Positions 4,879 through 45,290 of a DNA stretch of 64,000 nt are shown here, piece by piece (the first letter of the stretch is position 1; the number at the start of each line of letters is the position of its first letter). Source of the stretch: Corynebacterium sp. (GTDB lineage: Bacteria; Actinomycetota; Actinomycetes; Mycobacteriales; Mycobacteriaceae). The position numbers and the translations under genes were made by a program. The stretch covers positions 1 through 64,000 of the forward strand of contig NZ_JAUNLS010000008.1 of NCBI RefSeq assembly GCF_030532325.1. The letters are read 5' to 3'. Below the pieces are notes generated by a model. It saw nothing but the letters and a program-made list of their open reading frames with translations. It was not told the origin of the DNA and searched no databases.

Positions 4879-5466
4879 ATGGACCGTTACACATGGCACA
4901 GTCTCATCGATAACGACCAGAGCGACGAGGCCACCATCACCTTCTATGACCAGGGCCTCACAGCGACGGGAGTGCAGACAACCAGATCCTACCGCCTGCA
5001 CTGGAGCCTCAAAGCTCCTGAGGCGTGGACGACGCGCCGCTTTAGCGCCACGGTCGAGGGCGATGGATGGGCCCGCCGTCTGGACCTTGAACGCTCAGAA
5101 TCCGGGCGGTGGCACTGCGATACGGCGCTGTCCGGTACCCAACCCCAGGAGCTTGCCCAGCCGGGCTTCGACGATGCACGGGAGCTACTCGATGCTCGCG
5201 ATATTGATCTTGGCCGCTGCCCAATGACCAACACGATGCCCATTCGCCGGCTGGGACTGCTGGAGAAAGAAGTACCACGGACCAAGCTCATCATGGCGTG
5301 GATCGACGTGCCCTCACTGCATGTCATTGCCAGCGATCAGTACTATGCCTCGCACGATACCCACTCCGTTCGCTACGAATCCTGCACCAGAGGAGTCAAC
5401 GTGCTTCTGACGGTGAATTCCGCGGGCGTGGTCACTCACTACCCTGATTTGGCAGAATGCGTGTAA
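4879..5466 (+). CDS. Putative glycolipid-binding protein
   Basis: 195 residues, no signal peptide or membrane segment. The layout matches the putative glycolipid-binding family (PF06475-like): an aromatic-rich N-terminus (MDRYTWHSL), alternating beta strands with YRLHWSL and RFSATVEGDG, a central SGRWHCDTA, and the late strands MPIRRLGL, MAWIDVPSLHV and VLLTVNSAGVVTHYPDL. The ligand is unproven. It is a stand-alone gene between a divergent DUF5129-like gene and an acetyltransferase. Family assignment is from overall pattern and length, hence moderate confidence. Confidence 0.7.
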   Translation: MDRYTWHSLIDNDQSDEATITFYDQGLTATGVQTTRSYRLHWSLKAPEAWTTRRFSATVEGDGWARRLDLERSESGRWHCDTALSGTQPQELAQPGFDDARELLDARDIDLGRCPMTNTMPIRRLGLLEKEVPRTKLIMAWIDVPSLHVIASDQYYASHDTHSVRYESCTRGVNVLLTVNSAGVVTHYPDLAECV

Positions 5467-5546
5467 GGCTGCAGAGACAATAGTTAGCACTTGAAAAGCC
5501 TTCGCCTACTGCAATATAAGATCCGAAACATGGTAAGGGGTCGATC

Positions 5547-6140
5547 ATTAATTCTGGCTACACCACTCCTGTACATCTATCTGGCGATCACGTCACATTA
5601 GAACCGCTCTCCCTTAACCATGCCGATGGCTTGGCAGAAGCCGTCCGTGATGGAGAGCTTTACTCATTGTGGTACACGTCGATACCTCGGCCAGAAGAAA
5701 TGCAGAGGGAAATCCGTACGCGTTTACAGAAGCAAGAGGACGGACTCATTGCCGCTTATACAGTGCTCACTGTATCGACGGCGACACCTATCGGAATGAC
5801 CACGTTTCTCAACCCCGACACAGCTAATCAGCACATCGAAATCGGTTCCACCTGGATATCCGCAGCAGCACAAGGCACGAAAGTCAACAAGGAAATGAAA
5901 TTCCTCATGCTCCGTCACGCATTTGAGACTTTGCAGTGCGAACGCGTCGAACTCCGCACGCACCATATGAATAGGAAATCCAGAGCAGCAATCGAAAGTC
6001 TCGGCGCTCATCTTGATGGAATTCTTCGCCGTCACCGCTTACTCGATAATGGGACATGGCGTGACACGTGTGTTTACTCAATTTTGCGACATGAGTGGCC
6101 GACGGTGAAAGCAGGACTAGCAGCGACTCTAGCTCAATAA
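5547..6140 (+). CDS. GNAT N-acetyltransferase (RimJ/RimL type), start unclear
   Basis: An acetyl-CoA-dependent transferase of the RimJ/RimL group. It shows the N-terminal family strand HVTLEPLSLNHADGLAEA, the central PIGMTTFLN and IEIGSTWISAAAQGTKVNKEMK acceptor region, and the ending RVELRTHHMNRKSRAAIESLGA with DTCVYSILRHEW. The family N-terminus lies upstream of the first usual start codon in frame (TTG 5631). Between the in-frame TAA at 5517 and TTG 5631 there is no ATG, GTG or TTG. An ATT at 5547 follows AAGGGG by six bases and is shown here as the start. The alternatives are a mutated start or an N-terminally damaged gene. Confidence 0.65.
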   Translation: MNSGYTTPVHLSGDHVTLEPLSLNHADGLAEAVRDGELYSLWYTSIPRPEEMQREIRTRLQKQEDGLIAAYTVLTVSTATPIGMTTFLNPDTANQHIEIGSTWISAAAQGTKVNKEMKFLMLRHAFETLQCERVELRTHHMNRKSRAAIESLGAHLDGILRRHRLLDNGTWRDTCVYSILRHEWPTVKAGLAATLAQ

Positions 6141-6161
6141 TGTTATGTCCATGAACATATT

Positions 6162-6186
6162 GGACTCGGAGTCCAGTGACTTTTTG
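6162..6186 (+). terminator. Short palindrome with T-run after the acetyltransferase gene
   Basis: GGACTC-G-GAGTCC at 6162-6174 is followed by AGTGACTTTTT. It lies 20 bases after the stop of the acetyltransferase gene. The stem is short, so the call is tentative. Confidence 0.4.
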
Positions 6187-6208
6187 GACTGTTTCTAGTG
6201 CTGTTGGG

Positions 6209-6496
6209 TTAGCCTCGCTTTTTGCGTGATGGGCGTGGCCGGGAAAGCTCGGGTTTGATCTGCGGTGGCTGGCGGTGCCAGTGGCCTTGCACATAGCCGA
6301 TGTTGATTTGGCCTCCTGCGGGCCGGTGGGTCAGGGTGATTGGTAAAGGAAATGAAAAAAGCAATTCACCGTCGTGTGCGGTGAAGAATTCCGCGCGGTT
6401 ATTACTGTTGACTGTGCTGATGATGGTGCCTTGGGTGGTGGGGTTAAACCCGGCACTGGCTTTAACACCTTGTGAGGCTAACCATAATTCGGTTAC
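6209..6496 (-). pseudogene. C-terminal remnant of a transposase-like gene
   Basis: Reading the minus strand from 6496 gives about 95 open codons with a stop immediately before them. The peptide contains TELWLASQGVKASAG, GELLFSFPLPITLT and a basic ending RPRPSRKKRG. An open C-terminal piece with no start is what remains of a decayed gene. The late beta-rich extension resembles C-termini of IS481-type transposases in corynebacteria; this is a pattern judgement and uncertain. The piece neighbours other IS debris at 7.7 kb. Confidence 0.5.
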
Positions 6497-6607
6497 CTAT
6501 AGCTGCCCACGTGCTGGAGACAGAAGCCCTCTATTTAACGTGTTAAGTCTGATAAAAATCCGGTTCGTCAACTTGGATGAGTGACGAACCGGAGCGAATG
6601 TACTATT

Positions 6608-6742
6608 CTACTTTTTTGCAAACAAAACTCGAAGGCCTTTGCCTTGGAGCTTTGGATTATTTTCCATTCGCTTTTTTAGACCAAGGGCATAGCCAATGCT
6701 GCCCCCAGCAAAAACTACAATTGCGATGATCCACAGTGGCAT
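6608..6742 (-). CDS. Small membrane protein, possible immunity partner
   Basis: 44 residues: one hydrophobic segment (residues 3-21, LWIIAIVVFAGGSIGYALG) followed by a strongly basic cytoplasmic tail (KKRMENNPK, ending LFAKK). AGGAG sits six bases before the ATG at 6742. The gene begins 12 nt after the stop of the secreted protein gene upstream, so the two are almost certainly co-transcribed. A tiny basic single-span protein directly after a putative bacteriocin gene fits an immunity protein. That role is inference; no family is recognised. Confidence 0.6.
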   Translation of the reverse strand: MPLWIIAIVVFAGGSIGYALGLKKRMENNPKLQGKGLRVLFAKK

Positions 6743-6754
6743 GAGGTTCTCCTT

Positions 6755-7297
6755 TTAGCAGTGGGTAGATACCCATGTCCAGAATACGGTTTCGCCTGCA
6801 AGTGCTAGGCCAGCAATCACGGGGTTGACACCTGCTAGAGCTAGTACTTTGCCCCAAGCTGCAGCATGTCCTGCACCGACTAGGCCAACAACGTAAGGGC
6901 ATACCTGTTCTTTGGAGATGCGCTCTTCCATGGAAGCCTGTAGGCCGGCGATCTGTTCTGGGCTTGCTTCATTAAGACGAGCTCGAAGTGCTTGTGCGCT
7001 TTCCTCTGCGGTGATTGTTTTGGTTGAACCGTCAGGGTAAGTAGTAGTCACTTCTCCAGTGTCATTATTGATGGTTGCGGTAACTTCACCGTATTCATCA
7101 ACTGACAGTGTTTGAGTTGTGAGTCCATGAAGCTCGCCGCCGAGGAAAGCGGGAGTTTCGGCAGGATTTTGACTTACTGCACGTGTTTCTGTGAACGTTT
7201 GTGATGGTGGGGCTTGGACTGCCATCGCTGGTGTTTGAGCTGTCGACATAGATACAGCAATAAAAGCTGCAGCTAGGCCTTTCGCTACTTTATGCAT
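6755..7297 (-). CDS. Secreted bacteriocin-like precursor protein
   Basis: 180 residues from the ATG at 7297, chosen because AAGGAG lies just upstream and a clean signal peptide follows (MHKVAKGLAAAFIAVSM, AxA near residue 26). The middle (about 30-128) is hydrophilic. The last 48 residues are Gly/Ala-rich and hydrophobic, bounded by Cys133 and the C-terminal residue Cys180 (CPYVVGLVGAG, then ending FWTWVSTHC). A hydrophilic pro-region releasing a hydrophobic, cysteine-closed C-terminal peptide is the layout of halocin C8-like and class II-like bacteriocins. No established family could be named. The next gene, 12 nt on, encodes a 44-residue basic membrane protein. Base composition is lower in GC than the core genes. 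Confidence 0.6.
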   Translation of the reverse strand: MHKVAKGLAAAFIAVSMSTAQTPAMAVQAPPSQTFTETRAVSQNPAETPAFLGGELHGLTTQTLSVDEYGEVTATINNDTGEVTTTYPDGSTKTITAEESAQALRARLNEASPEQIAGLQASMEERISKEQVCPYVVGLVGAGHAAAWGKVLALAGVNPVIAGLALAGETVFWTWVSTHC

Positions 7298-7355
7298 TTT
7301 GCACTCCTTGGGGAACGATGATGTCGCTGTTTCCAGCACTTTTAGGGTAGCGCGC

Positions 7356-7510
7356 TTTACACCTGGATACATAGGTTAATTCCTATGTTAAATATCATAG
7401 TTTTGAAATTAACGAGGCAGACTTGTGAAAAACGTTACACCCTATTGTTACGTGTATTTATGTCAGTAAGTTACACGTGAAATAAGTCATTTTCTGCCAT
7501 TGTTTTACAC
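7356..7510. promoter_or_regulatory. Repeated TTACAC motifs upstream of the bacteriocin-like gene
   Basis: The AT-rich region upstream of the secreted-protein gene contains TTTACAC (7356-7362), GTTACAC (7434-7440), GTTACGT (7447-7453), GTTACAC (7470-7476) and TTTACAC (7504-7510). The third and fourth form the inverted pair ACGTGTA...TACACGT. This could be a regulator-binding array; function is not shown. Confidence 0.35.
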
Positions 7511-7679
7511 ATGGATAGTGGGATTTAGGCCTTATCTATACAGAAAGTGGTGGGCGTGGTGTTGCCGTCGGATGGTTTCCATATTGAAAGTCATATTGAC
7601 TCTGTGCCCGCGTTGGCGTGGGTGAAAAATTGACATGATGGATTGTCGTCGGGACAGCAGGCATTGGGCAAGATTGTAC

Positions 7680-7775
7680 AAGCCTTGCTTGCTGACGCGG
7701 ACGGTCTCGACGGTGTTCATAAAGGGCCACGGCATCGCGTTGAAACTCTTCGGAGTACTTGGAAATGGTGGTAGA
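7680..7775 (-). pseudogene. IS3-type OrfA remnant
   Basis: On the minus strand, TISKYSEEFQRDAVALYE is readable from about 7770 to 7720. This is the conserved beginning of OrfA proteins of IS3-family elements, before the helix-turn-helix. The frame then degrades (a shift near 7715), and no complete OrfA or OrfB follows. From 7532 to 8640 I see no intact gene. Confidence 0.5.
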
Positions 7776-8257
7776 TTACCTTTCTTCCCAGCCCAACTGG
7801 GCTGGATATCAGGCATCCACCAAATGGGGGTCAGGTCCCATAATCACTTCCTAGGCGCGATCCGGCCGCAACTACTTGCATGCAATATGACTCTTGACCT
7901 TTAGACGCTGCCAAACATTCAATACAACCATCGAGCCTGGATTGACCGCCTACACAGAAAGCCGCAGACACAAAACAAGGACGAAAAATCACGGCACCAA
8001 GCAAGGAGATTGGCCGAACCCTTCGAAAACAAAATTCAAAAGACGTGCCGAGCGGCGAAAACGGGATTTAGGATGTAAATCTCCACACTTGCAATCCTGG
8101 GTTAAGGGTCAGAAAGTGTGTCTGGGATCAGGGATTTCCAGGGTCTAACCTGGGCTTCCTGTAGAAATACATGCTCGCCAGGCATATATCGAGCAACTTT
8201 GCAGGAAATACCGGCAGAAGTGCTTTGTTGTGCTAGCGCTGCTTTTGCGAGGTGTAA

Positions 8258-8455
8258 GACGCAAGAGCAGTTGACAATGTCGCTTTCCTGACTCGACCAG
8301 GCGCGGGGAACCTACTAGCTAAGCCGCAGTTCAACGCTGGTGTTTGGGCGAATAAGTGGGCCCTCTCCTATGGAGACCGCCTCCAGGAAGCAGTATTAGA
8401 CGCCCTTGCCGCCTGGTGCCCCAGGGAAGGACTGCAGCAGCTCAGCAGTCTCTAA
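8258..8455 (+). pseudogene. Unidentified coding remnant
   Basis: An open frame of 65 codons follows a TAA and has no credible start. It contains AGVWANKWALSYGDRL and ALAAWCPREGLQQL before its stop at 8453. Codon use looks protein-like (GC-rich third positions), unlike the surrounding degraded sequence. It may be the C-terminal piece of a gene lost by rearrangement. I do not recognise the family, and it could be chance. Confidence 0.3.
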
Positions 8456-8571
8456 TCACAGTGAATACCGGGATCCACGACACGCCGAGCCAGACACACT
8501 TTTGACCCTTAACCCTCGACTGCCTACACATCAAGCCGAAGACTCTAAACAAGGCTGCCAGATCAGGACTA

Positions 8572-8626
8572 CGGAAAAAGAAAGAAACCGGAGGTCACAA
8601 CCCCTTTCGAGTTTGTTACCTCCGGT
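8572..8626 (-). terminator. Rho-independent terminator of tRNA-Leu
   Basis: Perfect nine-base arms ACCGGAGGT (8587-8595) and ACCTCCGGT (8618-8626). On the minus strand a T-rich run (CTTTCTTTTTCC) follows. It lies 27 bases after the tRNA 3' end. Confidence 0.75.
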
Positions 8627-8652
8627 GTCGCAGTTTGTTCAACTGCTCTTTG

Positions 8653-8737
8653 TGCCCGGGGCGGGACTTGAACCCGCACGTCCGTGAAGGACACTGGCAC
8701 CTGAAGCCAGCGCGTCTGCCAATTCCGCCACCCGGGC
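8653..8737 (-). tRNA. tRNA-Leu (CAG)
   Basis: The minus strand folds as a class II tRNA with acceptor GCCCGGG/CCCGGGC and discriminator A. It has the D-arm GTGGCGGAATTGGCAGAC, an anticodon loop centred on CAG, a long variable arm and T-arm GGGTTCAAGTCCC. The length of 85 bases and the long variable arm are typical of leucine tRNAs. CCA is not encoded. Confidence 0.95.
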
Positions 8738-8890
8738 AGGGTATCGATGTCTTTGGCGACTTGCTAACAGTAGCACGAGATCTACCTCCAACGGCAAATC
8801 CGCAGGCAAACACAAATTTTTGCAAAGAATCACGTTACGAATACCGGGAACTTGAGCGAGCGCGTCTACGTTTAAAAGGGGTAGGCACCC

Positions 8891-8896
8891 TATAAT
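8891..8896 (+). promoter_or_regulatory. -10 box of the fhaA operon
   Basis: A perfect TATAAT at 8891-8896 lies 74 bases before the fhaA start. No good -35 box is visible at the right distance, which is common in corynebacterial promoters. Confidence 0.55.
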
Positions 8897-8969
8897 TAGC
8901 GCTGCTATCCCAGAATCGCCCACGTATGGAAAGCACGTATGGAAAGACTGCACGGAAGGAGGACAGCTC

Positions 8970-9797
8970 GTGGCTCTGTTGGACAAGCTTGCGAAGCTGG
9001 ATTCCGCCATGCAGCGCGGACTGGACAACGGAATGGCGTTTGTCTTTGGAGGCAAAGTCGTCCCCGCCGAGATTGAAGAGCTTCTCAAGCAGGAGGCCCA
9101 CGACAATCTCGCCCGCGGGGAGGATGGGCTCCTCTACTGCCCGAACGTCTTTACCGTTGGCGTGTCCTCCAAGGACATTGAGAATTTGTCCCAGGACCGC
9201 GATGTTCCCACGGACTTCGCCGATCAACTCACCCGATTCATGCGCAACCATGGGTGGTCCCTCGCCGGGCCGGTCATCGTGCGCATCGCAGAGGAATCGG
9301 GCCTGCGTACCGGCCAGCTTCGCGTCTCGTCCTTCATTGACCACGAGCCCGAAGAAGAAACCGGCTTTGATGCGATTTTCCACGATGATGACGGTCAGGA
9401 GGACCAGATGACTCACCCCCATAACGCCGATGAAGCGGCAACCACCGCGTTCATTGCCCAGACCCCGCAGCAGCCGGAGACCACCCAGGGCCCCGCGGTG
9501 AACCTCATGCTGCAGGACGGCTCGTCCCGTGTGTACCACGTGCACGAGGGCTCGAACATCATCGGCCGCAGCAACGACGCCGATCTGCGCCTGCCCGATA
9601 CCGGCGTTTCCCGCCAGCACGCCGAGATCACCTGGGACGGTCGCGACGCCGTGCTCGTCGATCTGCAGTCCACCAACGGCACCACGGTCAACGACAGCCC
9701 GATTGAGAACTGGCTGCTTGCCGACGGCGACGTGATCACCATGGGCCATTCCCACATCGAGGTCCGCATCACGGGCGTCGATAAGCAGAGCTACTAA
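8970..9797 (+). CDS. fhaA: FHA-domain protein FhaA (DUF3662 + FHA)
   Basis: A phosphothreonine-binding adaptor of the cell-wall kinase system. In mycobacteria the orthologue binds phosphorylated envelope proteins and tunes peptidoglycan synthesis. Here it is 275 residues: an N-terminal DUF3662 domain (about 1-125, LDKLAKLDSAMQ) and a short acidic linker. The C-terminal FHA domain (about 180-270) has the signature residues GRSNDADLRL, SRQHAEI and STNGTTVND. The linker is much shorter than in mycobacterial FhaA. The GTG start at 8970 follows GGAGGAC. It is first in the operon fhaA-fhaB-pstP-rodA-pbpA-pknA-pknB. Confidence 0.95.
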   Translation: MALLDKLAKLDSAMQRGLDNGMAFVFGGKVVPAEIEELLKQEAHDNLARGEDGLLYCPNVFTVGVSSKDIENLSQDRDVPTDFADQLTRFMRNHGWSLAGPVIVRIAEESGLRTGQLRVSSFIDHEPEEETGFDAIFHDDDGQEDQMTHPHNADEAATTAFIAQTPQQPETTQGPAVNLMLQDGSSRVYHVHEGSNIIGRSNDADLRLPDTGVSRQHAEITWDGRDAVLVDLQSTNGTTVNDSPIENWLLADGDVITMGHSHIEVRITGVDKQSY

Positions 9798-36206: not shown

Positions 36207-37385
36207 TTACTCCTCATTCGCCAGCTCAGCGGCTTTACGGGCCGCGGCGTCCATGGTGGGTACTTGCTCCAGCTTGGGCAGGTGGGCGCGCTCAAGAATG
36301 CTCCGGCCCAGCTCCGCGTTGTTGCCGTCGAGGCGCACCACCAGCGGCTTGGGCTCCACTCCCTCTGCAGCGAGGATCTTGTAGGCCTGCACGATGCCCT
36401 TGGCCACCTCGTCGCAGGCGGTGATCCCACCGAAGACGTTGACAAAGACGGACTTCACCTGCGGATCTCCCAGGATCACCTCGAGCCCGTTGGCCATGAC
36501 CTCCGCGTTGGCGCCGCCTCCGATGTCCAGGAAGTTCGCCGGCTTGGGCTGGTTGGGCAGATCCTCTCCGGCGTAGGCCACGACGTCCAGGGTGGACATC
36601 ACCAGCCCCGCGCCGTTGCCAATGACCCCCACGGAGCCATCGAGCTTGACGTAATTGAGCCCCATCTTCTGGGCCTTGAGCTCCAGCGGGTCCGTGGCGC
36701 TGTGATCCTGGAGCTCAGCGTGCTCGCTGTGGCGGAAGGCGGCGTTGTCATCGAGGCTCACCTTGCCGTCGAGCGCGATCATCTCCCCTTGCGCGGTCTT
36801 GACCAGCGGGTTGACCTCCACCAGGGTGGCGTCCTCTGCGGTATAGACCTGGTAGAGCTTCTTGAACACGGGCACCAGCGCGGCCACGTCTGCCTCATCG
36901 AACCCGGCCTCGTAGGCCATATCGCGGGCCAGCGTATCGGTCATCCCATCCAGCGGGGAGAAGCTGCGCTTGATGAGTGCCTCGGGGCGCTCGGCGGCGA
37001 GCTTCTCAATCTCCACGCCGCCTTCTTTGGAGAGCATCGCCAGGTAGCGGCGCTTGGTGCGGTCCAACAGGATGGAAAAGTAATACTCCTCGGCGATCTC
37101 CGCTCCCTCAGCCACCATCACCTTGCGCACGGTGTGGTCCTTGATCTTCAGCCCCAGAATCTCATCGGCCTTCTTAGCGGCCTCGGCCGGGCTGTGCGCC
37201 AGCTTGACTCCTCCGGCCTTGCCGCGCCCGCCGGTTTTCACCTGCGCCTTGACGACGACCACCGGGGTCCCCAGCTTCGCCGCCGCCTCCTGCGCCTGCG
37301 TGGCTGAGGTGGCAACGATGCCGCGCAGCGTGGGCACGCCGTGTTGTTCGAAGAGGTCTCGAGCTTGGTACTCGTAGAGATCCAC
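36207..37385 (-). CDS. sucC: Succinyl-CoA synthetase beta subunit
   Basis: 392 residues. The ATP-grasp domain and family landmarks begin at [22 protein letters not shown]. They continue with [42 protein letters not shown] and [22 protein letters not shown] 37385 is chosen because GGGAGGG lies just before it and the protein then starts as in other SucC. The ATG at 37397 would place the ribosome binding site inside the gene. Operon sucC-sucD. Confidence 0.95.
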
Positions 37386-37599
37386 TGTCCCTCCCATTGT
37401 TGCAGTACGTGGTGCTCCCAAGAATTGCGAAAAGGCGACAGCGATGCAAAATACTTCGCACCAATCCTGCAAAGAATATTCACAGGCAAAGCAACGGGGC
37501 ACAATCCGCCCCCAAGCAGGCACTTTGCACGGGCTCGGCGGAAAGCATTTCTTCACCACATTCGCGGTTGGGGGCACCCGCTGTCATCTAAGAAGCCGT

Positions 37600-39315
37600 T
37601 TAGCGGATCAAGGGCGGAGCTTTTTCTTGTGGACCGCAGTAGCGAACTTCGCCATCGTCCAGCATCACGATCCAATCGCATTTTTGGGCAGTATCCATCG
37701 AATGCGTCACGATTATCCGGATTTCCTTCTCCCCACAGGGCGTAGTGAGAAGCCACCTCCGAAGCTCGGAGAGTCCCTGAGTATCCAACTCGGACTCGGG
37801 TTCGTCGACCACAATGACGTCACTATCGCTATGATGCGTTTCCCGCGCTAAAGCAACTCGTTTCCATTGCCCTCCGGACAAATCCGAAAACTCGTCCTGT
37901 TCGGAGGCATTGTTTGGCCGAAGATTCTTTTTCACAGTCAGATCCTGCATCGACCTGCTAGCCATGAGAGCCAAAGCATCTTTGCTCACTACTGGAGGGT
38001 TATCCAGTTCGATATTCTCAGAAAGAGTTCCTGTAAAGAACTTTGGGTCTTGGGGAACATAACGGATATCGCGTCCGGTAGCCACGTGAACGGCACCAGA
38101 CTGTGGCACGCGAACCCCTGCAATAATCTGCGCTAATGTACTTTTTCCAGAGCCATTTGGCCCCACGATTGCAGCCGTTGTACCCGCTGGGATTTGGATG
38201 CTGACGTGCCTCAAAGCCGTCTTCACAGCATGCTCGTGCCCATTCGCGAATGCGTAGCACACATCGTCTATGAGAACGTCATACCGATCACCAGCGGCGA
38301 GTTCACAGCCCTTTCCACTCGATTCTTGTGGCAACTCCGCCTCCATGGCGTGGGGCGTCACTAGCGAATCTACCCAACGACGAACTGCCATATCAGTCGA
38401 ATGCAACGACGCTGCTGTATAGAACGCCATGTCTGCACCGCCGATGATTCGAGGCGTAAGGAACAACAGTGCGGCAATCTCAGGCACACCGTAGGCGCCA
38501 TAGTGGAGCATCATGAATCCGGCTAAGCCCAGGCCGGCGAGCACTAGAACGAGCCCTGAACAGCTCAACATGAAGCTTTGAACGAGAGCTCTGCGTTGCG
38601 GATTCACCCACTCCCGGGCATGTTTCACAATGTGCTTGCTATACAGCTGCTGTGCTCCGAGTAGTCGAAGTTCATCGGCGCCCCTCCCCATTGTTAGACA
38701 ATCTATTAACTGATGAGCTCTAGCCAACTTAGATGCTTCGGAATCGGCACTTCGCTCAATCCGCGATTGTGCAACAAACCCAATTGCCGCCTGCCCCAGG
38801 CTCAACACCACTGGGATGAGCAACCACGGGCTAATAACCCATGCAGCGACAACAATTGACGCGAAGCTTGCCAGATTAGAAAGCGCCACAAACCAGCTGT
38901 TCAAACCCCTCCCAACGTCACCACGCCGCTGATTGACAAGTGCAAGACTTTTCTGTCGAGCGGAATTCTCAAAGTCCTCTAGAGATGTGGCACCTGCCAT
39001 GGAATCTAAAGTCGCTGCATCACTGTGATTATTAAAAACGTCAACCACGTACAGGCGTGCATTTGTTCCCGCGGCCGCGAGAGTAGTAGACATCCCGGTC
39101 AATACGGCCAATACCACGCCAGCAGTTAATGCCTGAATAGGGCTTCTCTCTAGGATTTCCCTGGTAATCCACTCAATCAGCCACACCTGAACGACCAAGA
39201 GAAAACTAAAAACGATTTCAGCAGCAGAAATCGCCATGTGCTTCGGCGCTAACTTCCACCCCTGCACAAAGAGAAAGCCCATTCGTTGCAGCGGCGTATC
39301 AGGATACTTGCGCAT
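37600..39315 (-). CDS. ABC exporter (membrane + ATPase), peptide-island transporter 2
   Basis: 571 residues from ATG 39315, which is preceded by GGGAGGCAGG; it overlaps the preceding ABC gene by 17 nt. About six membrane spans (residues 20-320) and one ATPase domain with Walker A GPNGSGKST, signature LSGGQWKRVALARE, Walker B VIVVDEPESELD and switch His IVTHSMD. It is AT-richer than the core genes around it. As the last gene of an operon that begins with a 26-residue peptide, it is most simply an exporter or self-protection pump, probably a heterodimer with the upstream ABC protein. Confidence 0.88.
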   Translation of the reverse strand: MRKYPDTPLQRMGFLFVQGWKLAPKHMAISAAEIVFSFLLVVQVWLIEWITREILERSPIQALTAGVVLAVLTGMSTTLAAAGTNARLYVVDVFNNHSDAATLDSMAGATSLEDFENSARQKSLALVNQRRGDVGRGLNSWFVALSNLASFASIVVAAWVISPWLLIPVVLSLGQAAIGFVAQSRIERSADSEASKLARAHQLIDCLTMGRGADELRLLGAQQLYSKHIVKHAREWVNPQRRALVQSFMLSCSGLVLVLAGLGLAGFMMLHYGAYGVPEIAALLFLTPRIIGGADMAFYTAASLHSTDMAVRRWVDSLVTPHAMEAELPQESSGKGCELAAGDRYDVLIDDVCYAFANGHEHAVKTALRHVSIQIPAGTTAAIVGPNGSGKSTLAQIIAGVRVPQSGAVHVATGRDIRYVPQDPKFFTGTLSENIELDNPPVVSKDALALMASRSMQDLTVKKNLRPNNASEQDEFSDLSGGQWKRVALARETHHSDSDVIVVDEPESELDTQGLSELRRWLLTTPCGEKEIRIIVTHSMDTAQKCDWIVMLDDGEVRYCGPQEKAPPLIR

Positions 39316-40894
39316 GGAACCTGCCTCCCGAAATCTCCACCACTCGATCCGCGTACCGCGTTTCTTGCGCATCGTGAGTACTGAAGACGACAATGAGCGA
39401 CGGGTTTTGCTGCCTAATCGCGTTCAAATGCTCGAAGAAATCACGCGTCGCCGCAGTGTCCAAGGACCGGCACGGCTCATCTAAGAGAACAGCACCGTCG
39501 TGCTCTGCGGCATGGAGAAGAGTACGCACCAAGTGCAGACGTTGCCATTGCCCACCAGACAAGCCCTTGCGGGGATCAGCATCAAAGTTCACCAGCTCGC
39601 AGAGTGGGAATGCTCGTGGCGGTGTTTCGCTCTTCAAAAAGCTGTCTCTCAAAGGCAATGGAAAGCGTGGGGGATCCTGAAATGCCATTACCGGCGTTCC
39701 GGCCACACAAACTTCACCACTGTCCGGAACAAGCAAACCAGCACAAAGAGATAAGGCTGTTGACTTTCCCGCCCCGTTCGCACCAGTCAGGGCAACTAAC
39801 TCGCCCGGCAGAACTTCCAATGAAGCATTGACAAGAATAGGCTCAGACTGCCGACTGTAAGTCACGTTTTTCATTGTCAATCCGACGGGCTCAGCTATCG
39901 GCGAGTTAGCTTCTCGGTGATCCTCTCGGACAAACGACAATCCACTGGAGATCTCCCGCAACACTCGCGTGGACTTTGCAAGAGCAACTCCGGAATCACC
40001 GGTTGGCCCCAACCCCTCAAGAGCGAGCATCAGCGGAATAGTGCTCGCTACCAATCCCAGTGAAACTGTGCCTGATAAAGACTGGGAGATAACAACAGAG
40101 CAACTAATCGCAAGTGCAACTACCTCAGCTACGTTGCTGAAGATGAGCGGTATCAACGCTTTCTGACGTACCTGAAGTGACATCGCGGAAACCTCGCGCG
40201 CTCGCTTTCTAAACAGAGACGAAAGAAAGCCAAATGCACGCAGATGGACAAAGTCAACTCTTCCGGCATGAGCTTGGGATACTAGATCTTGGGCGTAGCT
40301 ATTCTTTGCCGATATGTCCTCTGGCTCTACTTCAAGCCAACGCTGGAAATAATGTCCATTCACAATGAATGCCATTGCGAGCAACATCGCACAAACAATA
40401 TTCCACTGGATCAAAAAGAATAACGCAACCAATGAAGTAAGCCGCATCTTGAATACTTCGCCAGCCAGCGCAATGCATTCACGAAACCACCATTGCTGGG
40501 TATCGCTAACGAAAGCACGAGGTGTGTAGTCAGGCCTGCCCACAAGCATTGGCACGTGTTCCAACGCCTTCACTTGAAGATCTAGCTGAAGCCCTTGAAC
40601 TACATAATCAATAAGAAGCGGGCCAACAACGGCACATACGACGATCCCCCCAACAAGAGCTGCATCAAGAGCGGAAACTTCTCCCGTGGCTACGAAGATG
40701 TCAATCACTCTTCCAGCGACCGGAAAGAAGGCGATCGAAACAACTGCCACGGCACTAGTCAGGACAACAAACAGACTTCCTCGGAAGGGATAAAGCCGTA
40801 TCAGCTGAAAAGCCCATGCGAGACCTGAGTTGGTTTCAAGGACGCGAGTTCGAACCTCGATAACTGATGTTTTTAATTTTTCAATCGTACCCAA
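39299..40894 (-). CDS. ABC exporter (membrane + ATPase), peptide-island transporter 1
   Basis: 531 residues from TTG 40894 with GAGGTG six bases upstream. Membrane spans occupy about residues 38-300. The ATPase domain has Walker A GANGAGKST, signature LSGGQWQRLHLVRTLL, Walker B AVLLDEPCRSLD and switch His in FSTHDAQ. It shares the LSGGQW signature with its partner, which suggests a paralogous pair. The start lies 17 nt after the ancestral end (40911) of the helical-repeat gene, so all were one operon. Composition is low-GC and foreign-looking. Confidence 0.88.
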   Translation of the reverse strand: MGTIEKLKTSVIEVRTRVLETNSGLAWAFQLIRLYPFRGSLFVVLTSAVAVVSIAFFPVAGRVIDIFVATGEVSALDAALVGGIVVCAVVGPLLIDYVVQGLQLDLQVKALEHVPMLVGRPDYTPRAFVSDTQQWWFRECIALAGEVFKMRLTSLVALFFLIQWNIVCAMLLAMAFIVNGHYFQRWLEVEPEDISAKNSYAQDLVSQAHAGRVDFVHLRAFGFLSSLFRKRAREVSAMSLQVRQKALIPLIFSNVAEVVALAISCSVVISQSLSGTVSLGLVASTIPLMLALEGLGPTGDSGVALAKSTRVLREISSGLSFVREDHREANSPIAEPVGLTMKNVTYSRQSEPILVNASLEVLPGELVALTGANGAGKSTALSLCAGLLVPDSGEVCVAGTPVMAFQDPPRFPLPLRDSFLKSETPPRAFPLCELVNFDADPRKGLSGGQWQRLHLVRTLLHAAEHDGAVLLDEPCRSLDTAATRDFFEHLNAIRQQNPSLIVVFSTHDAQETRYADRVVEISGGRFHAQVS

Positions 40895-41059
40895 CTATTG
40901 CACCTCACCACTAGTGAAATGGATAAGGGGGTAGAGTCTTAGCTCTTGCTAATAGTTCCAATCCACGAGAATGACTGCCATTTTTCCTAGACAGCTCCTC
41001 AAATAAACTAGAAAAACCACGGACACCGAAAAACGTCGGGATTAGAACCTTTGCACAGT

Positions 41060-41117
41060 TGAACGCTTCATCAAATTGCCCATTCAACTGAACGCTTCAT
41101 CAAATTGCCCATTCAAC
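41060..41117. repeat. 29-bp tandem duplication in the helical-repeat gene
   Basis: A 29-base unit occurs twice head to tail at 41060-41088 and 41089-41117, identical in both copies. It begins TGAACGCTTCATCAAATTGC. Because 29 is not a multiple of three, the second copy shifts the reading frame of the gene that crosses it and creates the present stop at 41084. Confidence 0.95.
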
Positions 41118-42307
41118 CCGTACAAACGCATACCGTCGTAAACAACTTTTTCGTCTATTTGACAACGTAGCTTCGCTTGTTCAAAAGTTTCCAAAGCTTT
41201 TTCATACTGGCCTGTTTTAATAAAACAATCTATAACAAGCTTATGGGCACCATAGAAGTCAGACTCACATCTAGCCGACTGCAATGCATAGTCAACTGAG
41301 CCCTCAAAATCTCCAGAACGGAATAATAATCGAGCCATATTTAGCAAGGCGACAGATTCGAGATGCACCAAGTGATGGGACCGCTCTTGTCCGCCCTTTG
41401 CTTGTGCAATTGATTCCAATGCTAAGCGCTTCGCCAACATCCCGTCTTTAACCTTCATCGCCGCTAGCGCAGCAGCATTGAGCAAAAAGGTTCTGTCCTC
41501 CAACCCAAGTTCCTTCTGCTGTTCTTGCGACATCCACGGCAATAGAATGTCAAGAGCCTTCTTTGAATTCTGCAAGTTGGTCGGAAAATATCGGGAATAA
41601 AACGTAGAGACAAGTACGTCCAATTCCAACCGATCTGAAATAGATAGAGCCTCCCTATCTATAGATTGCAGGGTATCCCACCCTTCCACAGTCCTTGAAT
41701 TGATCTGTAGTAAAGATGCTTTTAGGAGCAACAGCTCAGGAGACAGCGCGGTTCCGCGCTGTTCATGAAACAGCAATAAAGCCAAAGGATTAACAGGATC
41801 ACCAGCAACCGATAGTTTTAGCAACTGATGCATATCGAGCCCGGTTTTAGAAGTGGCACTAAATCGCACAATTCTTGAGGGCGACTTGGACAGATCCTCT
41901 ACCACTTCAAAGTCCGCGGTTGCATTCAGGAAGGGGCGTTCAACTCCAATTTGTTTTGGAATCGGTTTACTATTCACAAATAATGAAGCCGCAGCAACCC
42001 ATGCCGCAACTGCACTTTTTTGTATTTCCAACTGGTCATTTTTACAAAGCTCGAAGCGACTAAATGCGTACTCAATTTCCTCCGGTTCAGAGGCCAAAAC
42101 CACAGCAGCAACGCGTGAATAGATCGCTTGCGGAGGAAATATCCTACCCCCAGTCCGCTTCTGGTGATTCAATCCCACTCTTTTAGTGCGCAATACCGCT
42201 CCACAGGATAGATTTTGCTTCTCTTGACCCGCGTGCCGTGCGTTTCCTTCTTCAGGCCATATTCGACTAGGCGATAGATATTTTAAGACAGGATTAAATT
42301 CAACCAT
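41084..42307 (-). CDS. Large helical-repeat protein of the peptide island, truncated
   Basis: 407 residues from ATG 42307 (GGGGC upstream; ATG 42322 is possible). No family is recognised. The C-terminal half is built of paired helices like TPR units (EDRTFLLNAAALAAMKVKDG, SVALLNMARLLFRSGDFEG, KLVIDCFIKTGQYEKALETF). The N-terminal 80 residues are basic and less ordered. It may bind the small peptide or activate its maturation; no catalytic motif is visible. Removing one copy of the 29-bp duplication restores 49 further codons (NCAKVLIPTFFGVRGF to PPYPFH) with a stop at 40911, 17 nt before the ABC gene. The present form is therefore probably damaged. Confidence 0.7.
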   Translation of the reverse strand: MVEFNPVLKYLSPSRIWPEEGNARHAGQEKQNLSCGAVLRTKRVGLNHQKRTGGRIFPPQAIYSRVAAVVLASEPEEIEYAFSRFELCKNDQLEIQKSAVAAWVAAASLFVNSKPIPKQIGVERPFLNATADFEVVEDLSKSPSRIVRFSATSKTGLDMHQLLKLSVAGDPVNPLALLLFHEQRGTALSPELLLLKASLLQINSRTVEGWDTLQSIDREALSISDRLELDVLVSTFYSRYFPTNLQNSKKALDILLPWMSQEQQKELGLEDRTFLLNAAALAAMKVKDGMLAKRLALESIAQAKGGQERSHHLVHLESVALLNMARLLFRSGDFEGSVDYALQSARCESDFYGAHKLVIDCFIKTGQYEKALETFEQAKLRCQIDEKVVYDGMRLYGLNGQFDEAFS

Positions 42308-42327
42308 GGCTGCCCCAATCATAAAGG

Positions 42328-42351
42328 GAGCGCCGGCGATTCCCGGCGCTC
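42328..42351 (-). terminator. Intergenic stem-loop after the small peptide gene
   Basis: Arms GAGCGCCGG (42328-42336) and CCGGCGCTC (42343-42351) with a six-base loop lie seven bases after the peptide stop and just before the next start. The sequence CCCTTTATG follows on the minus strand. Such attenuators after precursor genes let the peptide be made in excess of the downstream proteins. Confidence 0.65.
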
Positions 42352-42358
42352 GAGTTAG

Positions 42359-42439
42359 TTACTTGCAGTGACGGTATGCGGGCGCGCAGCCCATAAAGGC
42401 TTCGTCCAGCAGCAGCTCTTCGAGAGTTGCGTGTCTCAT
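42359..42439 (-). CDS. 26-residue two-cysteine peptide (possible bacteriocin or signal precursor)
   Basis: A very short gene with an ideal ribosome binding site (AAAGGAGGG, four bases before ATG 42439) and a strong promoter. The first half is acidic and helical (LEELLLDEAF), like a leader recognised by processing or export proteins. The C-terminal part is GCAPAYRHCK, with Cys18 and Cys25 seven residues apart. It is first in the operon, followed by a stem-loop, a helical-repeat protein and two ABC exporters. It could be a ribosomally made modified peptide, a disulfide-closed peptide, or a pheromone. No known modification enzyme is next to it, so the class is open. Confidence 0.65.
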   Translation of the reverse strand: MRHATLEELLLDEAFMGCAPAYRHCK

Positions 42440-42468
42440 AGTCCCTCCTTTCTTTGCTGTATATCATA

Positions 42469-42497
42469 GTTATACTCTCACGTGTTTTATAACACAA
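42469..42497 (-). promoter_or_regulatory. Promoter of the peptide operon
   Basis: On the minus strand TTGTGT (42497-42492), a 17-base spacer and TATAAC (42474-42469), 30 bases before the peptide ATG. A palindrome GTGTTATAAAACAC (42482-42495) overlaps the -35 box and may be an operator. Confidence 0.6.
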
Positions 42498-42676
42498 TAG
42501 CCTACGGGCATATAAAACTCGATGAGCTCATTGATGGCCCGAGCTTGCCAAGTAAATGCGCTTCGGGTTTAACCGTGGGTAGTACCGGCTCAATACTGAA
42601 AGCGTTAGCAGCATGAAGTTCGGCACGTTCACATATACGCAACTGGCGAATCTTCCCAAGTTTGTTTATCCAATGA

Positions 42677-43270
42677 CTCTTTGGACTCGGAGCCGAGACA
42701 CTTGCCGAAGTTGCCACAACTGTCCACCACACCCGAATCACGTTCAATGACTGGCTCAAACAACGCACCTACCGCAGCTGCCTTACCCCAGAACAAGTAC
42801 CCACATGGGTAAACACCAACCAAAAATGGTGGTACACCCACCGCAATGCCCGCAGAGCACTACGACGACTAGAAAAGCTGCTCAAAGCAGGCGAACTCTT
42901 CGTCTTCCTTACCCCACCCCAAGGCACCACCACTGACCTCAAGTCCACCACAAACCTCCTAGAAGGAGGAATCAACAAACAGCTCAAAGACCTCGCCGGC
43001 AAACACCGCGGCATGTTCGACGAACACCAACGCATCACCATGGACTGGTGGCTCTACCACCACACCCCATCACCAAGACCACCACTCGAGCTAGCCAAAG
43101 AACAAGACTTCGGCCGCCTAGGAGAACAAGCCGCACACCAAGCCTGGCAACAAGAACAACAGCAACGCTACGGCAGCCCCGACGGACGCCCAGCAACCTA
43201 CGACACCGGCATCGACCAAGAATGGAACCCCAGCATAGGCATCAGAAAGGGCTGGGCCGGCAAAGGCTAA
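42677..43270 (+). pseudogene. IS1249-type transposase, C-terminal remnant
   Basis: An open stretch of 197 codons follows an in-frame TGA at 42674 and has no start. It includes FNDWLKQRTYRSC and DLKSTTNLLEGGINKQLKDL, followed by FDEHQRITMDWWLYHH. The LEGGIN and EHQR...WWLYHH blocks resemble the C-terminal part of IS1249-group transposases of corynebacteria. The catalytic N-terminal half is missing. It marks the right border of the peptide island, next to two tRNA genes. Confidence 0.7.
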
Positions 43271-43361
43271 ATCCACACAAAATGTCCCTTAAGATGACAC
43301 GCCGCAAATCCACACAAAAGGCCTCTTAACCCGGAGACGCTGGGACAATTCGGCACACACG

Positions 43362-43398
43362 AACACCCTCCAGCCAGAATGACTGGAGGGTGTTTTCC
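43362..43398. terminator. Hairpin next to tRNA-Ala (TGC)
   Basis: Perfect 12-base arms AACACCCTCCAG (43362-43373) and CTGGAGGGTGTT (43383-43394) lie six bases from the tRNA 3' end. A TTTTCC run is on the plus side and a weaker TTCGTG on the minus side, so it may work in both directions. Confidence 0.7.
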
Positions 43399-43400
43399 TG

Positions 43401-43473
43401 TGGAGCATAGGAGAATCGAACTCCTGACCTTCTGCTTGCAAAGCAGATGCTCTACCAATTGAGCTAATGCCCC
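43401..43473 (-). tRNA. tRNA-Ala (TGC)
   Basis: 73 bases on the minus strand: acceptor GGGGCAT/ATGCTCC, D-arm TAGCTCAATTGGTAGAGC, anticodon stem TCTGC/GCAGA with loop TTTGCAA (anticodon TGC), T-arm AGGAGTTCGATTCTCCT, discriminator A. Confidence 0.96.
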
Positions 43474-43484
43474 ATTGTTCCTGG

Positions 43485-43558
43485 TGGGCCTAGCTGGAAT
43501 CGAACCAGCGACCTCATCGTTATCAGCGATGCGCTCTAACCGACTGAGCTATAGGCCC
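43485..43558 (-). tRNA. tRNA-Ile (GAT)
   Basis: 74 bases on the minus strand: acceptor GGGCCTA/TAGGCCC, discriminator A, D-arm TAGCTCAGTCGGTTAGAGC, anticodon stem CATCG/CGATG with loop CTGATAA (anticodon GAT), T-arm GCTGGTTCGATTCCAGC. It is transcribed towards the tRNA-Ala gene 11 bases away. Confidence 0.96.
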
Positions 43559-43745
43559 CTAGCGGAACGAGTAGTAACTCTACATAGAACCCTCCACAGA
43601 ACACAAATCGCATGGTCAACCATGGTTTTAATACGGTTTGCACGGGCGGCAGGCGCACGCCTATCCGCCCGGCGATTCACGCGCGTGATGTGATGATAGG
43701 CACTATATTGATACAGCATTAGCCACAACACATAGGAGGCGTTCT

Positions 43746-44678
43746 ATGACGACTTTTCTGCCGCATGCGGTGAACCTCTCAGAGTGGAGAGACTTCCTGG
43801 CGCAGAACTTCGCCTCCTTGCGTACCGCCGAAGCACCCAACGCCCAAGACTTCAGCGCCGCCTTTGAGCGCAGACTCGTGGGCAACATCGAAATCTATGA
43901 CATCGCCACCGAGGCACACACCCTGGAGCGCTCCCCGCAGCTCATTAGCCGCGATGCGCCGCGTGACGTCAAGATCTACCTGCAGCTCACCGGGACGAGC
44001 ATCGTGGAGCAGGGACCGCGCTCCTGTTCCTTGCGGCCGGGAGAGCTCACCATTTTTGTTACCCACCAGCCCTACGTCGTGCGCTTCCCCCAATCGCAGA
44101 CGGGGCTGCTGATCAAGTTCCCGGCCTCCCTCGTCACCGCCACGGTGGAGCTGATGGAAAGGATTTCCACCACGGTTATCAAGGATTCCGAGGGTATGGG
44201 CGCCGTGCTCATCCCGGCGCTGCGCGCTTTGGGTAGCGCGCCTGAGCTGTCTGCCGACGCCCTCTCCGCGCAGGCCCTGGAGCATCTCCTGGAGGGGGTC
44301 GTGCTGGCCGTCGCCCAGCAGCAGCTCTCCCAGCACGAGCGCATCGGGGACCAGCTCTTTGTCAAGGCCACCGAGCACATCGACCTCAACCTGGGCGATC
44401 CGGAACTCAGCCCCAAAACCGTGGCCGACGCCCTATTTGTCTCACTGCGCAACCTGCAAAAGCACTTCGCGGATCATAATCTCACCGTGACCAGATTTAT
44501 CCGCTCCCGCCGCTTACACATGATTCGGCGCGACCTAGCCAACCCGAGCTTTCAGCACCTTTCCATCATGGACATCGCGGAATCACACGGGGTGACCGAC
44601 GCCAGCTACATGTCGCGCTCCTTCAAGTCCGAGTTCGGGCTCAGCCCGCGGGCGTACCGGCTGCGCGCGGCCGGATGA
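43746..44678 (+). CDS. AraC-family regulator (cupin-like N-terminus)
   Basis: 310 residues. The N-terminal half (about 1-180) resembles the AraC-like ligand-binding domain (PF14525 type), with VKIYLQLTGTSIVEQGPRSC and LRPGELTIFVTHQPYVV. The C-terminal half (about 205-310) carries two helix-turn-helix units: SPKTVADALFVSLRNLQKHF and IMDIAESHGVTDASYMSRSF, followed by KSEFGLSPRAYR. Regulators with this N-terminus often control catabolic genes such as amine oxidases. A flavin amine oxidase lies 2 kb downstream on the other strand, so a link is possible but not shown. GGAGG precedes the ATG. Confidence 0.92.
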   Translation: MTTFLPHAVNLSEWRDFLAQNFASLRTAEAPNAQDFSAAFERRLVGNIEIYDIATEAHTLERSPQLISRDAPRDVKIYLQLTGTSIVEQGPRSCSLRPGELTIFVTHQPYVVRFPQSQTGLLIKFPASLVTATVELMERISTTVIKDSEGMGAVLIPALRALGSAPELSADALSAQALEHLLEGVVLAVAQQQLSQHERIGDQLFVKATEHIDLNLGDPELSPKTVADALFVSLRNLQKHFADHNLTVTRFIRSRRLHMIRRDLANPSFQHLSIMDIAESHGVTDASYMSRSFKSEFGLSPRAYRLRAAG

Positions 44679-44864: not shown

Positions 44865-45290
44865 ATGACCAAGCCTTTCGTCGCCACCGCAGCCGCAGCC
44901 GTCCTCGCCGCAGGCCTTAGCGCCTGCACCCCGCCCAACGAGAACCCCTCCCCCGGCACCTCTGCCCAGGAGACCGCCGCCAGTGAGGGGAGCACGAGTA
45001 CTGCGGCCGAGGGCCATGACCAGGGCTCCAGCCACTCCGGACACGAGGGAATGGAGCACCCCACCGACGGCGGCCCCGTCCCCGCCGGGATGCAGCCGGC
45101 GGCTGACCCCGCCTTCCCGGTTGGCTCCACCGTTACCCTCAACACCGACCACATGCCGGGCATGGAGGGGGCCACGGCCACCATTGATTCCTCCACCGAC
45201 CAAACTGTGTACGTGGTTGACTACGAGGCCGACGGCACGCAGTGGAAGAACCACAAGTGGGTCGTGGAGGATGAAATCCAGCCTGCCTAA
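44865..45290 (+). CDS. DUF1541 (YdhK-like) copper-linked lipoprotein
   Basis: 141 residues. Lipoprotein signal with lipobox LSAC (Cys near 22), then an acidic Ser/Thr/His-rich linker with several HS and HE pairs. A single DUF1541 unit (about 82-138) follows, with GSTVTLNTDHMPGMEGATAT, QTVYVVDYEADGT and HKWVVEDEI. Bacillus YdhK carries two such units; here there is one. The Met/His residues in DHMPGM could bind copper. A CsoR-type operator upstream supports a copper-responsive envelope role. The ATG follows AAGGAG. Confidence 0.85.
   Translation: MTKPFVATAAAAVLAAGLSACTPPNENPSPGTSAQETAASEGSTSTAAEGHDQGSSHSGHEGMEHPTDGGPVPAGMQPAADPAFPVGSTVTLNTDHMPGMEGATATIDSSTDQTVYVVDYEADGTQWKNHKWVVEDEIQPA

What the first reader, a model, noticed from the sequence alone, without database searches (positions are those of the whole stretch)
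37600..42497. Candidate undescribed peptide operon: promoter, 26-residue Cys peptide, stem-loop, helical-repeat protein and two ABC exporters
On one strand the order is a good promoter with a palindrome over the -35 box, an ideally initiated 26-codon gene with two cysteines near its C-terminus (GCAPAYRHCK), an attenuator hairpin, a large TPR-like protein of no recognised family, and two ABC exporters with overlapping ends. Composition differs from flanking core genes. A transposase remnant and tRNA genes border it. The arrangement fits production and export of a small peptide, but no known RiPP enzyme, peptidase domain or regulator is present.
Basis: partly seen in the sequence, partly recalled or inferred. 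Interest (0 to 1): 0.8.

Follow-up and report, generated by a model that had tools for sequence, protein, structure and literature searches.

The report
Orphan peptide-and-exporter operon, partly broken
A small foreign-looking operon in one bacterium seems to make a 26-residue two-cysteine peptide and pump something out of the cell, but the relatives checked do not share the peptide and its middle gene carries a frame-shifting duplication, so its product is unproven.

Summary
The anatomy reported is there. On the minus strand lie a 26-codon ORF (42439-42359) with an 8-nt Shine-Dalgarno match, a 9-bp GC hairpin, a gene for a TPR-type protein and two ABC exporter half-genes. Their GC (45-53%) is well below adjacent sucC (65%), and an IS1249-type transposase remnant and two tRNA genes lie beside them. 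The promoter is weak, and the palindrome's geometry occurs 93 times in the window.

It shifts the frame of the TPR gene: the protein stops after 407 residues and its continuation lies in another frame.

Comparison goes against conservation. The ABC1 profile matches 3 other genomes of 242 in the genus, each beside a second ABC gene. None of the three has the 26-codon ORF or the TPR gene; one has an unrelated 38-aa hydrophobic ORF there. I found no credible homologue of the peptide in the genus genomes, plasmids or phages searched.

Best reading (0.42): a horizontally acquired, species-restricted peptide-export operon, possibly decaying. Rivals: a regulatory leader peptide, or an ordinary exporter with a chance ORF.

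The parts
42469..42497 (-). promoter-like TTGTGT-17-TATAAC, weak; the palindrome 42482-42495 overlaps it
   Evidence: 8 of 12 consensus positions; 93 palindromes of the same geometry in the window; not listed by the scan
42444..42451 (-). Shine-Dalgarno AAAGGAGG, 4 nt before ATG
   Evidence: longest contiguous match of any ATG in the window
42359..42439 (-). 26-codon ORF, candidate two-Cys peptide (Cys 18 and 25)
   Evidence: no Pfam or NCBIfam match
42328..42351 (-). hairpin, 9 bp, 7 nt after the ORF stop; followed by CCTTTATGAT, no long T run
41084..42307 (-). TPR-type orphan protein, 407 codons (412 from ATG 42322), ended by a frame shift
41060..41117 (-). exact 29-bp tandem duplication, two copies, that shifts the frame of the TPR gene
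40911..41087 (-). continuation of the TPR coding sequence in another frame (58 codons counted from TTG 41087)
   Evidence: no Pfam match on its own
39299..40894 (-). ABC1, exporter half-transporter, 531 aa, TTG start
   Evidence: PF00005 2.2e-15
37600..39315 (-). ABC2, exporter half-transporter; ORF listed from TTG 39393, likelier start ATG 39315
   Evidence: PF00005 3e-21; start context
42695..43270 (+). C-terminal part of an IS1249-type transposase, no start
   Evidence: NF033544 3e-44 over positions 213-380 of 382; 77% nt identity to L032 over 591 nt
43400..43558 (-). tRNA-Ala(tgc) and tRNA-Ile(gat)

Best explanation
A horizontally acquired, species-restricted operon for a small secreted peptide. 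The 26-codon gene is translated strongly (inferred from its SD). The stem-loop after it keeps the downstream genes at lower expression or protects the peptide message (inferred). The TPR-type protein holds or matures the peptide (inferred; nothing shows an enzyme). ABC1-ABC2 form a heterodimeric exporter (family shown; pairing and substrate inferred). The exported part would be the C-terminal GCAPAYRHCK, perhaps closed by a disulfide outside the cell, since no RiPP enzyme was recognised (inferred). In this assembly the TPR gene is frame-shifted by a 29-bp tandem duplication (shown), so the operon may be impaired, may vary in repeat number between cells, or may tolerate a shortened protein.
For: Longest SD of any ATG in the window; 110 of 20000 shuffles of the leader gave a closed ORF of at least 20 codons with an SD of at least 7 nt (test designed after seeing the ORF). 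Stable hairpin right after the ORF. Downstream start sites look weaker. Exporter half-genes with conventional ATPase motifs (motif names recalled). GC 45-53% against 65% in sucC, IS1249 remnant beside it, TPR gene and peptide absent from the other genus genomes searched (200 and 241). In G118 the related pair also follows a small ORF.
Against: No homologue of the peptide; the three genomes with related pairs lack peptide and TPR gene, and two of them (G196, G182) have no SD-led small ORF before ABC1. No recognised tailoring enzyme, peptidase or regulator in the operon. Weak promoter. Short SD gap. The TPR gene is frame-shifted.
Confidence: 0.42

Rival explanations
1. The 26-codon ORF is a regulatory leader peptide. 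Ribosomes translating it or stalling on it (for example at the Cys codons 18 and 25) govern the hairpin that starts 7 nt after its stop codon, and so control the exporter genes; nothing is secreted from the ORF itself.
For: Short ORF directly before a strong terminator-like hairpin and the exporter genes; no conservation of the peptide sequence; CydC/CydD models among the best NCBIfam matches of both ABC proteins.
Against: Only two Cys codons, seven apart, no run of one regulatory codon; no long T run after the stem; no competing antiterminator evident in the minimum-energy fold; no Rfam leader match.
Confidence: 0.25
2. The 26-codon ORF is a chance or decaying frame. ABC1-ABC2 are an ordinary exporter of some small molecule, carried on an acquired segment that is being lost, and the TPR gene is an unrelated orphan.
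For: The ABC pair occurs without peptide and TPR gene in three other genomes of the genus; TPR gene frame-shifted; foreign composition and IS remnant.
Against: An 8-nt SD before an ATG is 1 of 1723 in the window; both ABC frames are intact over full length.
Confidence: 0.23
3. The TPR protein is an intracellular receptor of the peptide, a signalling pair of the Rap/RRNPP kind, with the ABC genes as its exporter.
For: C-terminal TPR-type helices encoded next to a small peptide gene.
Against: No HTH or phosphatase family match; no importer or regulator in the operon; orphan protein, model of low confidence outside roughly residues 256-394; frame-shifted gene.
Confidence: 0.06

Closest known systems
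RiPP operons with precursor gene, maturation protein and two ABC half-transporters, such as ramCSAB/amf of Streptomyces (recalled, no call)
   Same: Small precursor-like ORF, one protein gene and two tandem half-transporters.
   Different: No kinase-cyclase or other RiPP enzyme recognised; a TPR-type orphan stands in that place; precursor has one Thr and no Ser, so no lanthionine ring is likely.
Leaderless bacteriocins of the aureocin A53 type (PMC11580447, passages seen)
   Same: Small peptide gene and ABC-type export without an obvious protease.
   Different: Aureocin A53 is 51 residues, highly cationic, five Trp; this ORF is 26 residues, no Trp, 4 acidic against 3 Arg/Lys.
CydDC thiol exporter
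   Same: Two adjacent half-transporters; CydC and CydD models among the best NCBIfam matches.
   Different: Scores of 88-127 bits against cut-offs of 329 and 435; no cydAB recognised among the ORFs next to the pair (my reading).
RRNPP/Rap peptide receptors (recalled)
   Same: TPR-type C-terminus beside a small peptide gene.
   Different: No HTH or phosphatase domain matched; two exporters in the same operon.

Membership tests
RiPP/bacteriocin biosynthetic operon | small precursor ORF with its own initiation signal | tested here: met
   26 codons, 8-nt SD
RiPP/bacteriocin biosynthetic operon | dedicated ABC exporter | tested here: inconclusive
   two exporter half-genes; substrate unknown, and related pairs live without the peptide
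RiPP/bacteriocin biosynthetic operon | recognised tailoring enzyme or leader peptidase | tested here: not met
   none in Pfam or NCBIfam scans of the operon's proteins
RiPP/bacteriocin biosynthetic operon | precursor conserved in relatives | tested here: not met
   no credible homologue in the other 241 genus genomes; 7 of 23 weak hits inspected
RiPP/bacteriocin biosynthetic operon | peptide is made and exported | not testable with these tools
   needs RNA, ribosome profiling or mass spectrometry
Leaderless bacteriocin (aureocin A53 type) | cationic, Trp-containing peptide of about 50 residues | tested here: not met
   26 residues, 0 Trp, net acidic; criteria from passages
Attenuation leader peptide | short ORF before a terminator hairpin | tested here: met
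   hairpin 7 nt after the stop, but without a long T run
Attenuation leader peptide | run of codons for the regulating amino acid | tested here: not met
   Cys at 18 and 25 only
Attenuation leader peptide | alternative antiterminator fold | tested here: inconclusive
   one single-sequence fold; no relatives to test covariation
CydDC exporter | NCBIfam CydC/CydD curated score | tested here: not met
   88.8/88.2 bits for ABC1 and 126.9/104.4 for ABC2 against 329.05/435
RRNPP receptor | TPR peptide-binding region | tested here: inconclusive
   TPR-type repeats, most below curated cut-offs
RRNPP receptor | N-terminal HTH or phosphatase-type domain | tested here: not met
   no match at E up to 1

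The most novel reading that the evidence does not exclude
A peptide class not yet described, in which an orphan TPR-type protein alone, without a known tailoring enzyme, matures or chaperones a 26-residue two-Cys precursor for a heterodimeric peptidase-less exporter, with output switched by the copy number of a 29-bp tandem repeat inside the maturation gene.
Probability: 0.08. Interest if true: 0.75.

Novelty: new variant of a known kind. Interest (0 to 1): 0.33.

Why it matters
If the peptide is made, it would be a species-specific signal or antibacterial peptide from an operon that enzyme-based mining would overlook, because no known RiPP enzyme was recognised in it. As it stands it is one unconserved short ORF next to a rare ABC pair and a frame-shifted orphan gene, so it is a lead for a bench test rather than an established system.

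Tried and rejected
Conservation of the peptide: tblastn in plasmids and phages gave nothing at E up to 10. In 242 genus genomes there were 23 weak hits besides its own (E 0.19-1.0). I looked at the 7 of these 23 that came as loci: none is a comparable small gene with the same features, and in three the same DNA carries a recognisable gene in another frame (OppF-type ATPase in L014 and L015, Rho in L016; my reading of the DNA, no family search). The other 16 were not fetched. A degenerate DNA pattern for the C-terminal part found 0 in viral contigs.

TPR protein as a known family: Pfam matches all below their cut-offs; one NCBIfam PPR repeat match just above its cut-off (20.6 against 20 bits); PADLOC none; PDB 25 sequences at E up to 1, nearly all TPR/PPR-type repeat proteins, many of them designed; genome contigs one match, 35% over residues 318-377, in the TPR part; viral contigs none. 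These last two scans find close relatives only. A structure from one sequence was poor (mean pLDDT 44.5), so no fold search was made. Defence-system matches of the ABC proteins look like generic ATPase hits.

ABC pair outside the genus: none at E 1e-35 in the 297 other order and 344 other class genomes with the single sequence, none at 1e-45 in the 235 other phylum genomes with the two-sequence profile, no plasmid at 1e-20 for ABC1, no viral contig. The genome samples share members and a divergent pair could be missed. ABC2 alone matches 4112 plasmid records at 1e-10, all under 60% identity, so it was not used for tracing.

Insertion boundary: of the direct repeats found in 37350-43480, none flanks the operon as a clean target duplication. 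The upstream sides of sucC in G011, G014 and G017 (about 6-8 kb each) lack the operon by blastn, but their neighbouring genes differ too, so no clean empty site was shown.

Papers: four searches listed 0, 0, 12 and 4 papers; titles and abstract beginnings were seen, and passages of PMC11580447 and PMC13361665. Nothing seen there describes this peptide or arrangement; subscription papers are not held.
Full report
What is there. On the minus strand the order is: a 26-codon ORF at 42439-42359 (MRHATLEELLLDEAFMGCAPAYRHCK), a hairpin at 42351-42328, an ORF of 407 codons from 42307 (412 from 42322), ABC1 at 40894-39299 and ABC2 ending at 37600. ABC2 is listed from TTG 39393, but ATG 39315, preceded by GGGAGG, is the more likely start and overlaps the end of ABC1 by 17 nt. 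GC (and GC3) are 0.454 (0.424), 0.514 (0.496) and 0.527 (0.537) for the three large genes, against 0.648 (0.854) for the next gene; the 26-codon ORF has GC 0.568. That next gene is sucC (NCBIfam PRK00696, 521.8 bits against a cut-off of 370).

Translation signals. Of 1723 ATGs on both strands of the window, one, this ORF's, has an 8-nt contiguous match to AAAGGAGGTG at 4-12 nt; 6 have 7 nt and 22 have 6. With GTG and TTG counted, 3 of 6005 have 8 nt. Of 20000 dinucleotide shuffles of the 383-nt leader, 110 gave a closed ORF of at least 20 codons with an SD of at least 7 nt, and 620 with at least 6. The test was designed after the ORF was seen, so it overstates surprise. The SD-ATG gap is only 4 nt. 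The hairpin folds at -20.6 kcal/mol in a 43-nt stretch (z -4.29, 0 of 200 shuffles) and less remarkably in a 67-nt stretch (z -1.40); it heads the list of terminator-like sites in the region (14 found, 6.8 expected). The whole 171-nt leader is not unusual (z -0.76). No Rfam family besides the tRNAs reached its gathering score in 37300-43600.

Promoter. The claimed promoter matches 8 of 12 consensus positions; the scan tool, which asks for 9, listed one site in the region, elsewhere, against 4.9 expected. The palindrome over it has 5-bp arms and a 4-bp gap, a geometry found 93 times in the window. Neither is evidence.

Positions 41060-41088 and 41089-41117 are identical. Twenty-nine is not a multiple of three, so the TPR frame stops inside the repeat, and the rest of the protein, 58 codons counted from TTG 41087, lies in another frame ending at 40911, 16 nt before the ABC1 start. 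The exact identity suggests a recent event, an active repeat or an assembly error; no reads were available. I did not read the gene through.

The TPR protein. Its C-terminal part resembles TPR/PPR repeats: best Pfam E 3.3e-5, below the gathering score; one NCBIfam PPR repeat model just above its cut-off, 20.6 against 20 bits; in the PDB mostly TPR/PPR-type repeat proteins, many designed. A model from the single sequence is fairly confident only around residues 321-380 (block means 69-82; mean pLDDT 44.5). It matches none of the 200 other genus genomes searched, no plasmid and no viral contig, and its N-terminal 309 residues match none of 235 other phylum genomes. One MAG contig matched over residues 318-377. 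Within these searches it is an orphan.

The ABC pair. Both have the ABC_tran domain; no Pfam transmembrane or C39 peptidase domain is among the matches. Best NCBIfam matches are generic transporters including CydC and CydD, well below cut-off. Walker A, signature, Walker B and H-loop residues look conventional in both (sequences; motif names recalled). With a two-sequence profile, 4 of 242 genus genomes match ABC1 at E 1e-50 or better, own genome included; the three others carry a second ABC gene next to it, and the window's proteins are 29-35% identical to them. With the single sequence nothing was found at 1e-35 in 297 other order and 344 other class genomes, and with the profile nothing at 1e-45 in 235 other phylum genomes.

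What the relatives show. In G118 (a genome 53% complete) the pair follows a 38-aa hydrophobic ORF, MGLMEILISLLGIGIWLIIPGLLIAILAIVLKILKKNS, with a 5-nt SD. In G196 no ORF of 12-120 codons with an SD of 5 nt or more stands in the roughly 800 nt before ABC1. In G182 the only one in the roughly 1100 nt before ABC1 is the 3' end of the preceding gene. G118, G196 and G182 gave no match for the TPR protein or for the 26-residue peptide at E up to 1. So the pair is an exporter type that can live without these genes.

Setting. The frame 42695-43270 on the plus strand is the C-terminal part of an IS1249-type transposase (NF033544, E 3e-44, profile positions 213-380 of 382), 77% identical over 591 nt to an intact-looking 403-codon gene of G011. 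tRNA-Ala and tRNA-Ile follow. The sucC of G011, G014 and G017 has no such operon in the 6-8 kb upstream. Low GC, the IS remnant and the absence of peptide and TPR gene from relatives point to horizontal acquisition. The genus is unnamed in the tools; Corynebacterium is my inference.

How it most likely works. A short ORF with a strong SD, a stem-loop, then more weakly initiated genes and an exporter pair is a usual way to make much precursor and little machinery (recalled from bacteriocin and RiPP operons). I therefore put 0.42 on a secreted peptide. Translation, modification, export and disulfide closure are inferred. The leader-peptide reading (0.25) and the ordinary-exporter reading (0.23) remain open, and the lack of conservation weighs for them. 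The shifted TPR gene suggests that the operon may be decaying or variable.

Novelty. Four paper searches showed nothing that describes it; subscription papers are not held. If real it is a new variant of peptide-export operon. Interest is modest because nothing beyond one genome supports it.

Noticed in passing
L005 6313-6429 (G118), before the related ABC pair: A 38-aa hydrophobic ORF with a basic C-terminus and a 5-nt SD directly before ABC1; it could be a small membrane or leaderless-type peptide. Its only Pfam match is a sub-threshold cell-wall anchor motif.
   Followed up: partly
L005 467-4608 and 10016-11431 (G118): By my reading, an oligopeptide-type importer with its binding protein lies before, and MFS-like frames after, the related ABC pair; no family search was made.
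   Followed up: no
window 5001-9000: A second low-GC stretch (47-55%) in the window, reaching tRNA-Leu at 8652.
   Followed up: no
window 43746-44678 (+) and 44865-45290 (+): An AraC-type regulator and a DUF1541 protein lie beyond the tRNA genes; no link to the operon is shown.
   Followed up: no
L032 3189-5803 (G011): Two adjacent related transposase genes stand upstream of sucC in a relative, the nearer one split into two overlapping frames; a tRNA-Lys lies beside them.
   Followed up: partly
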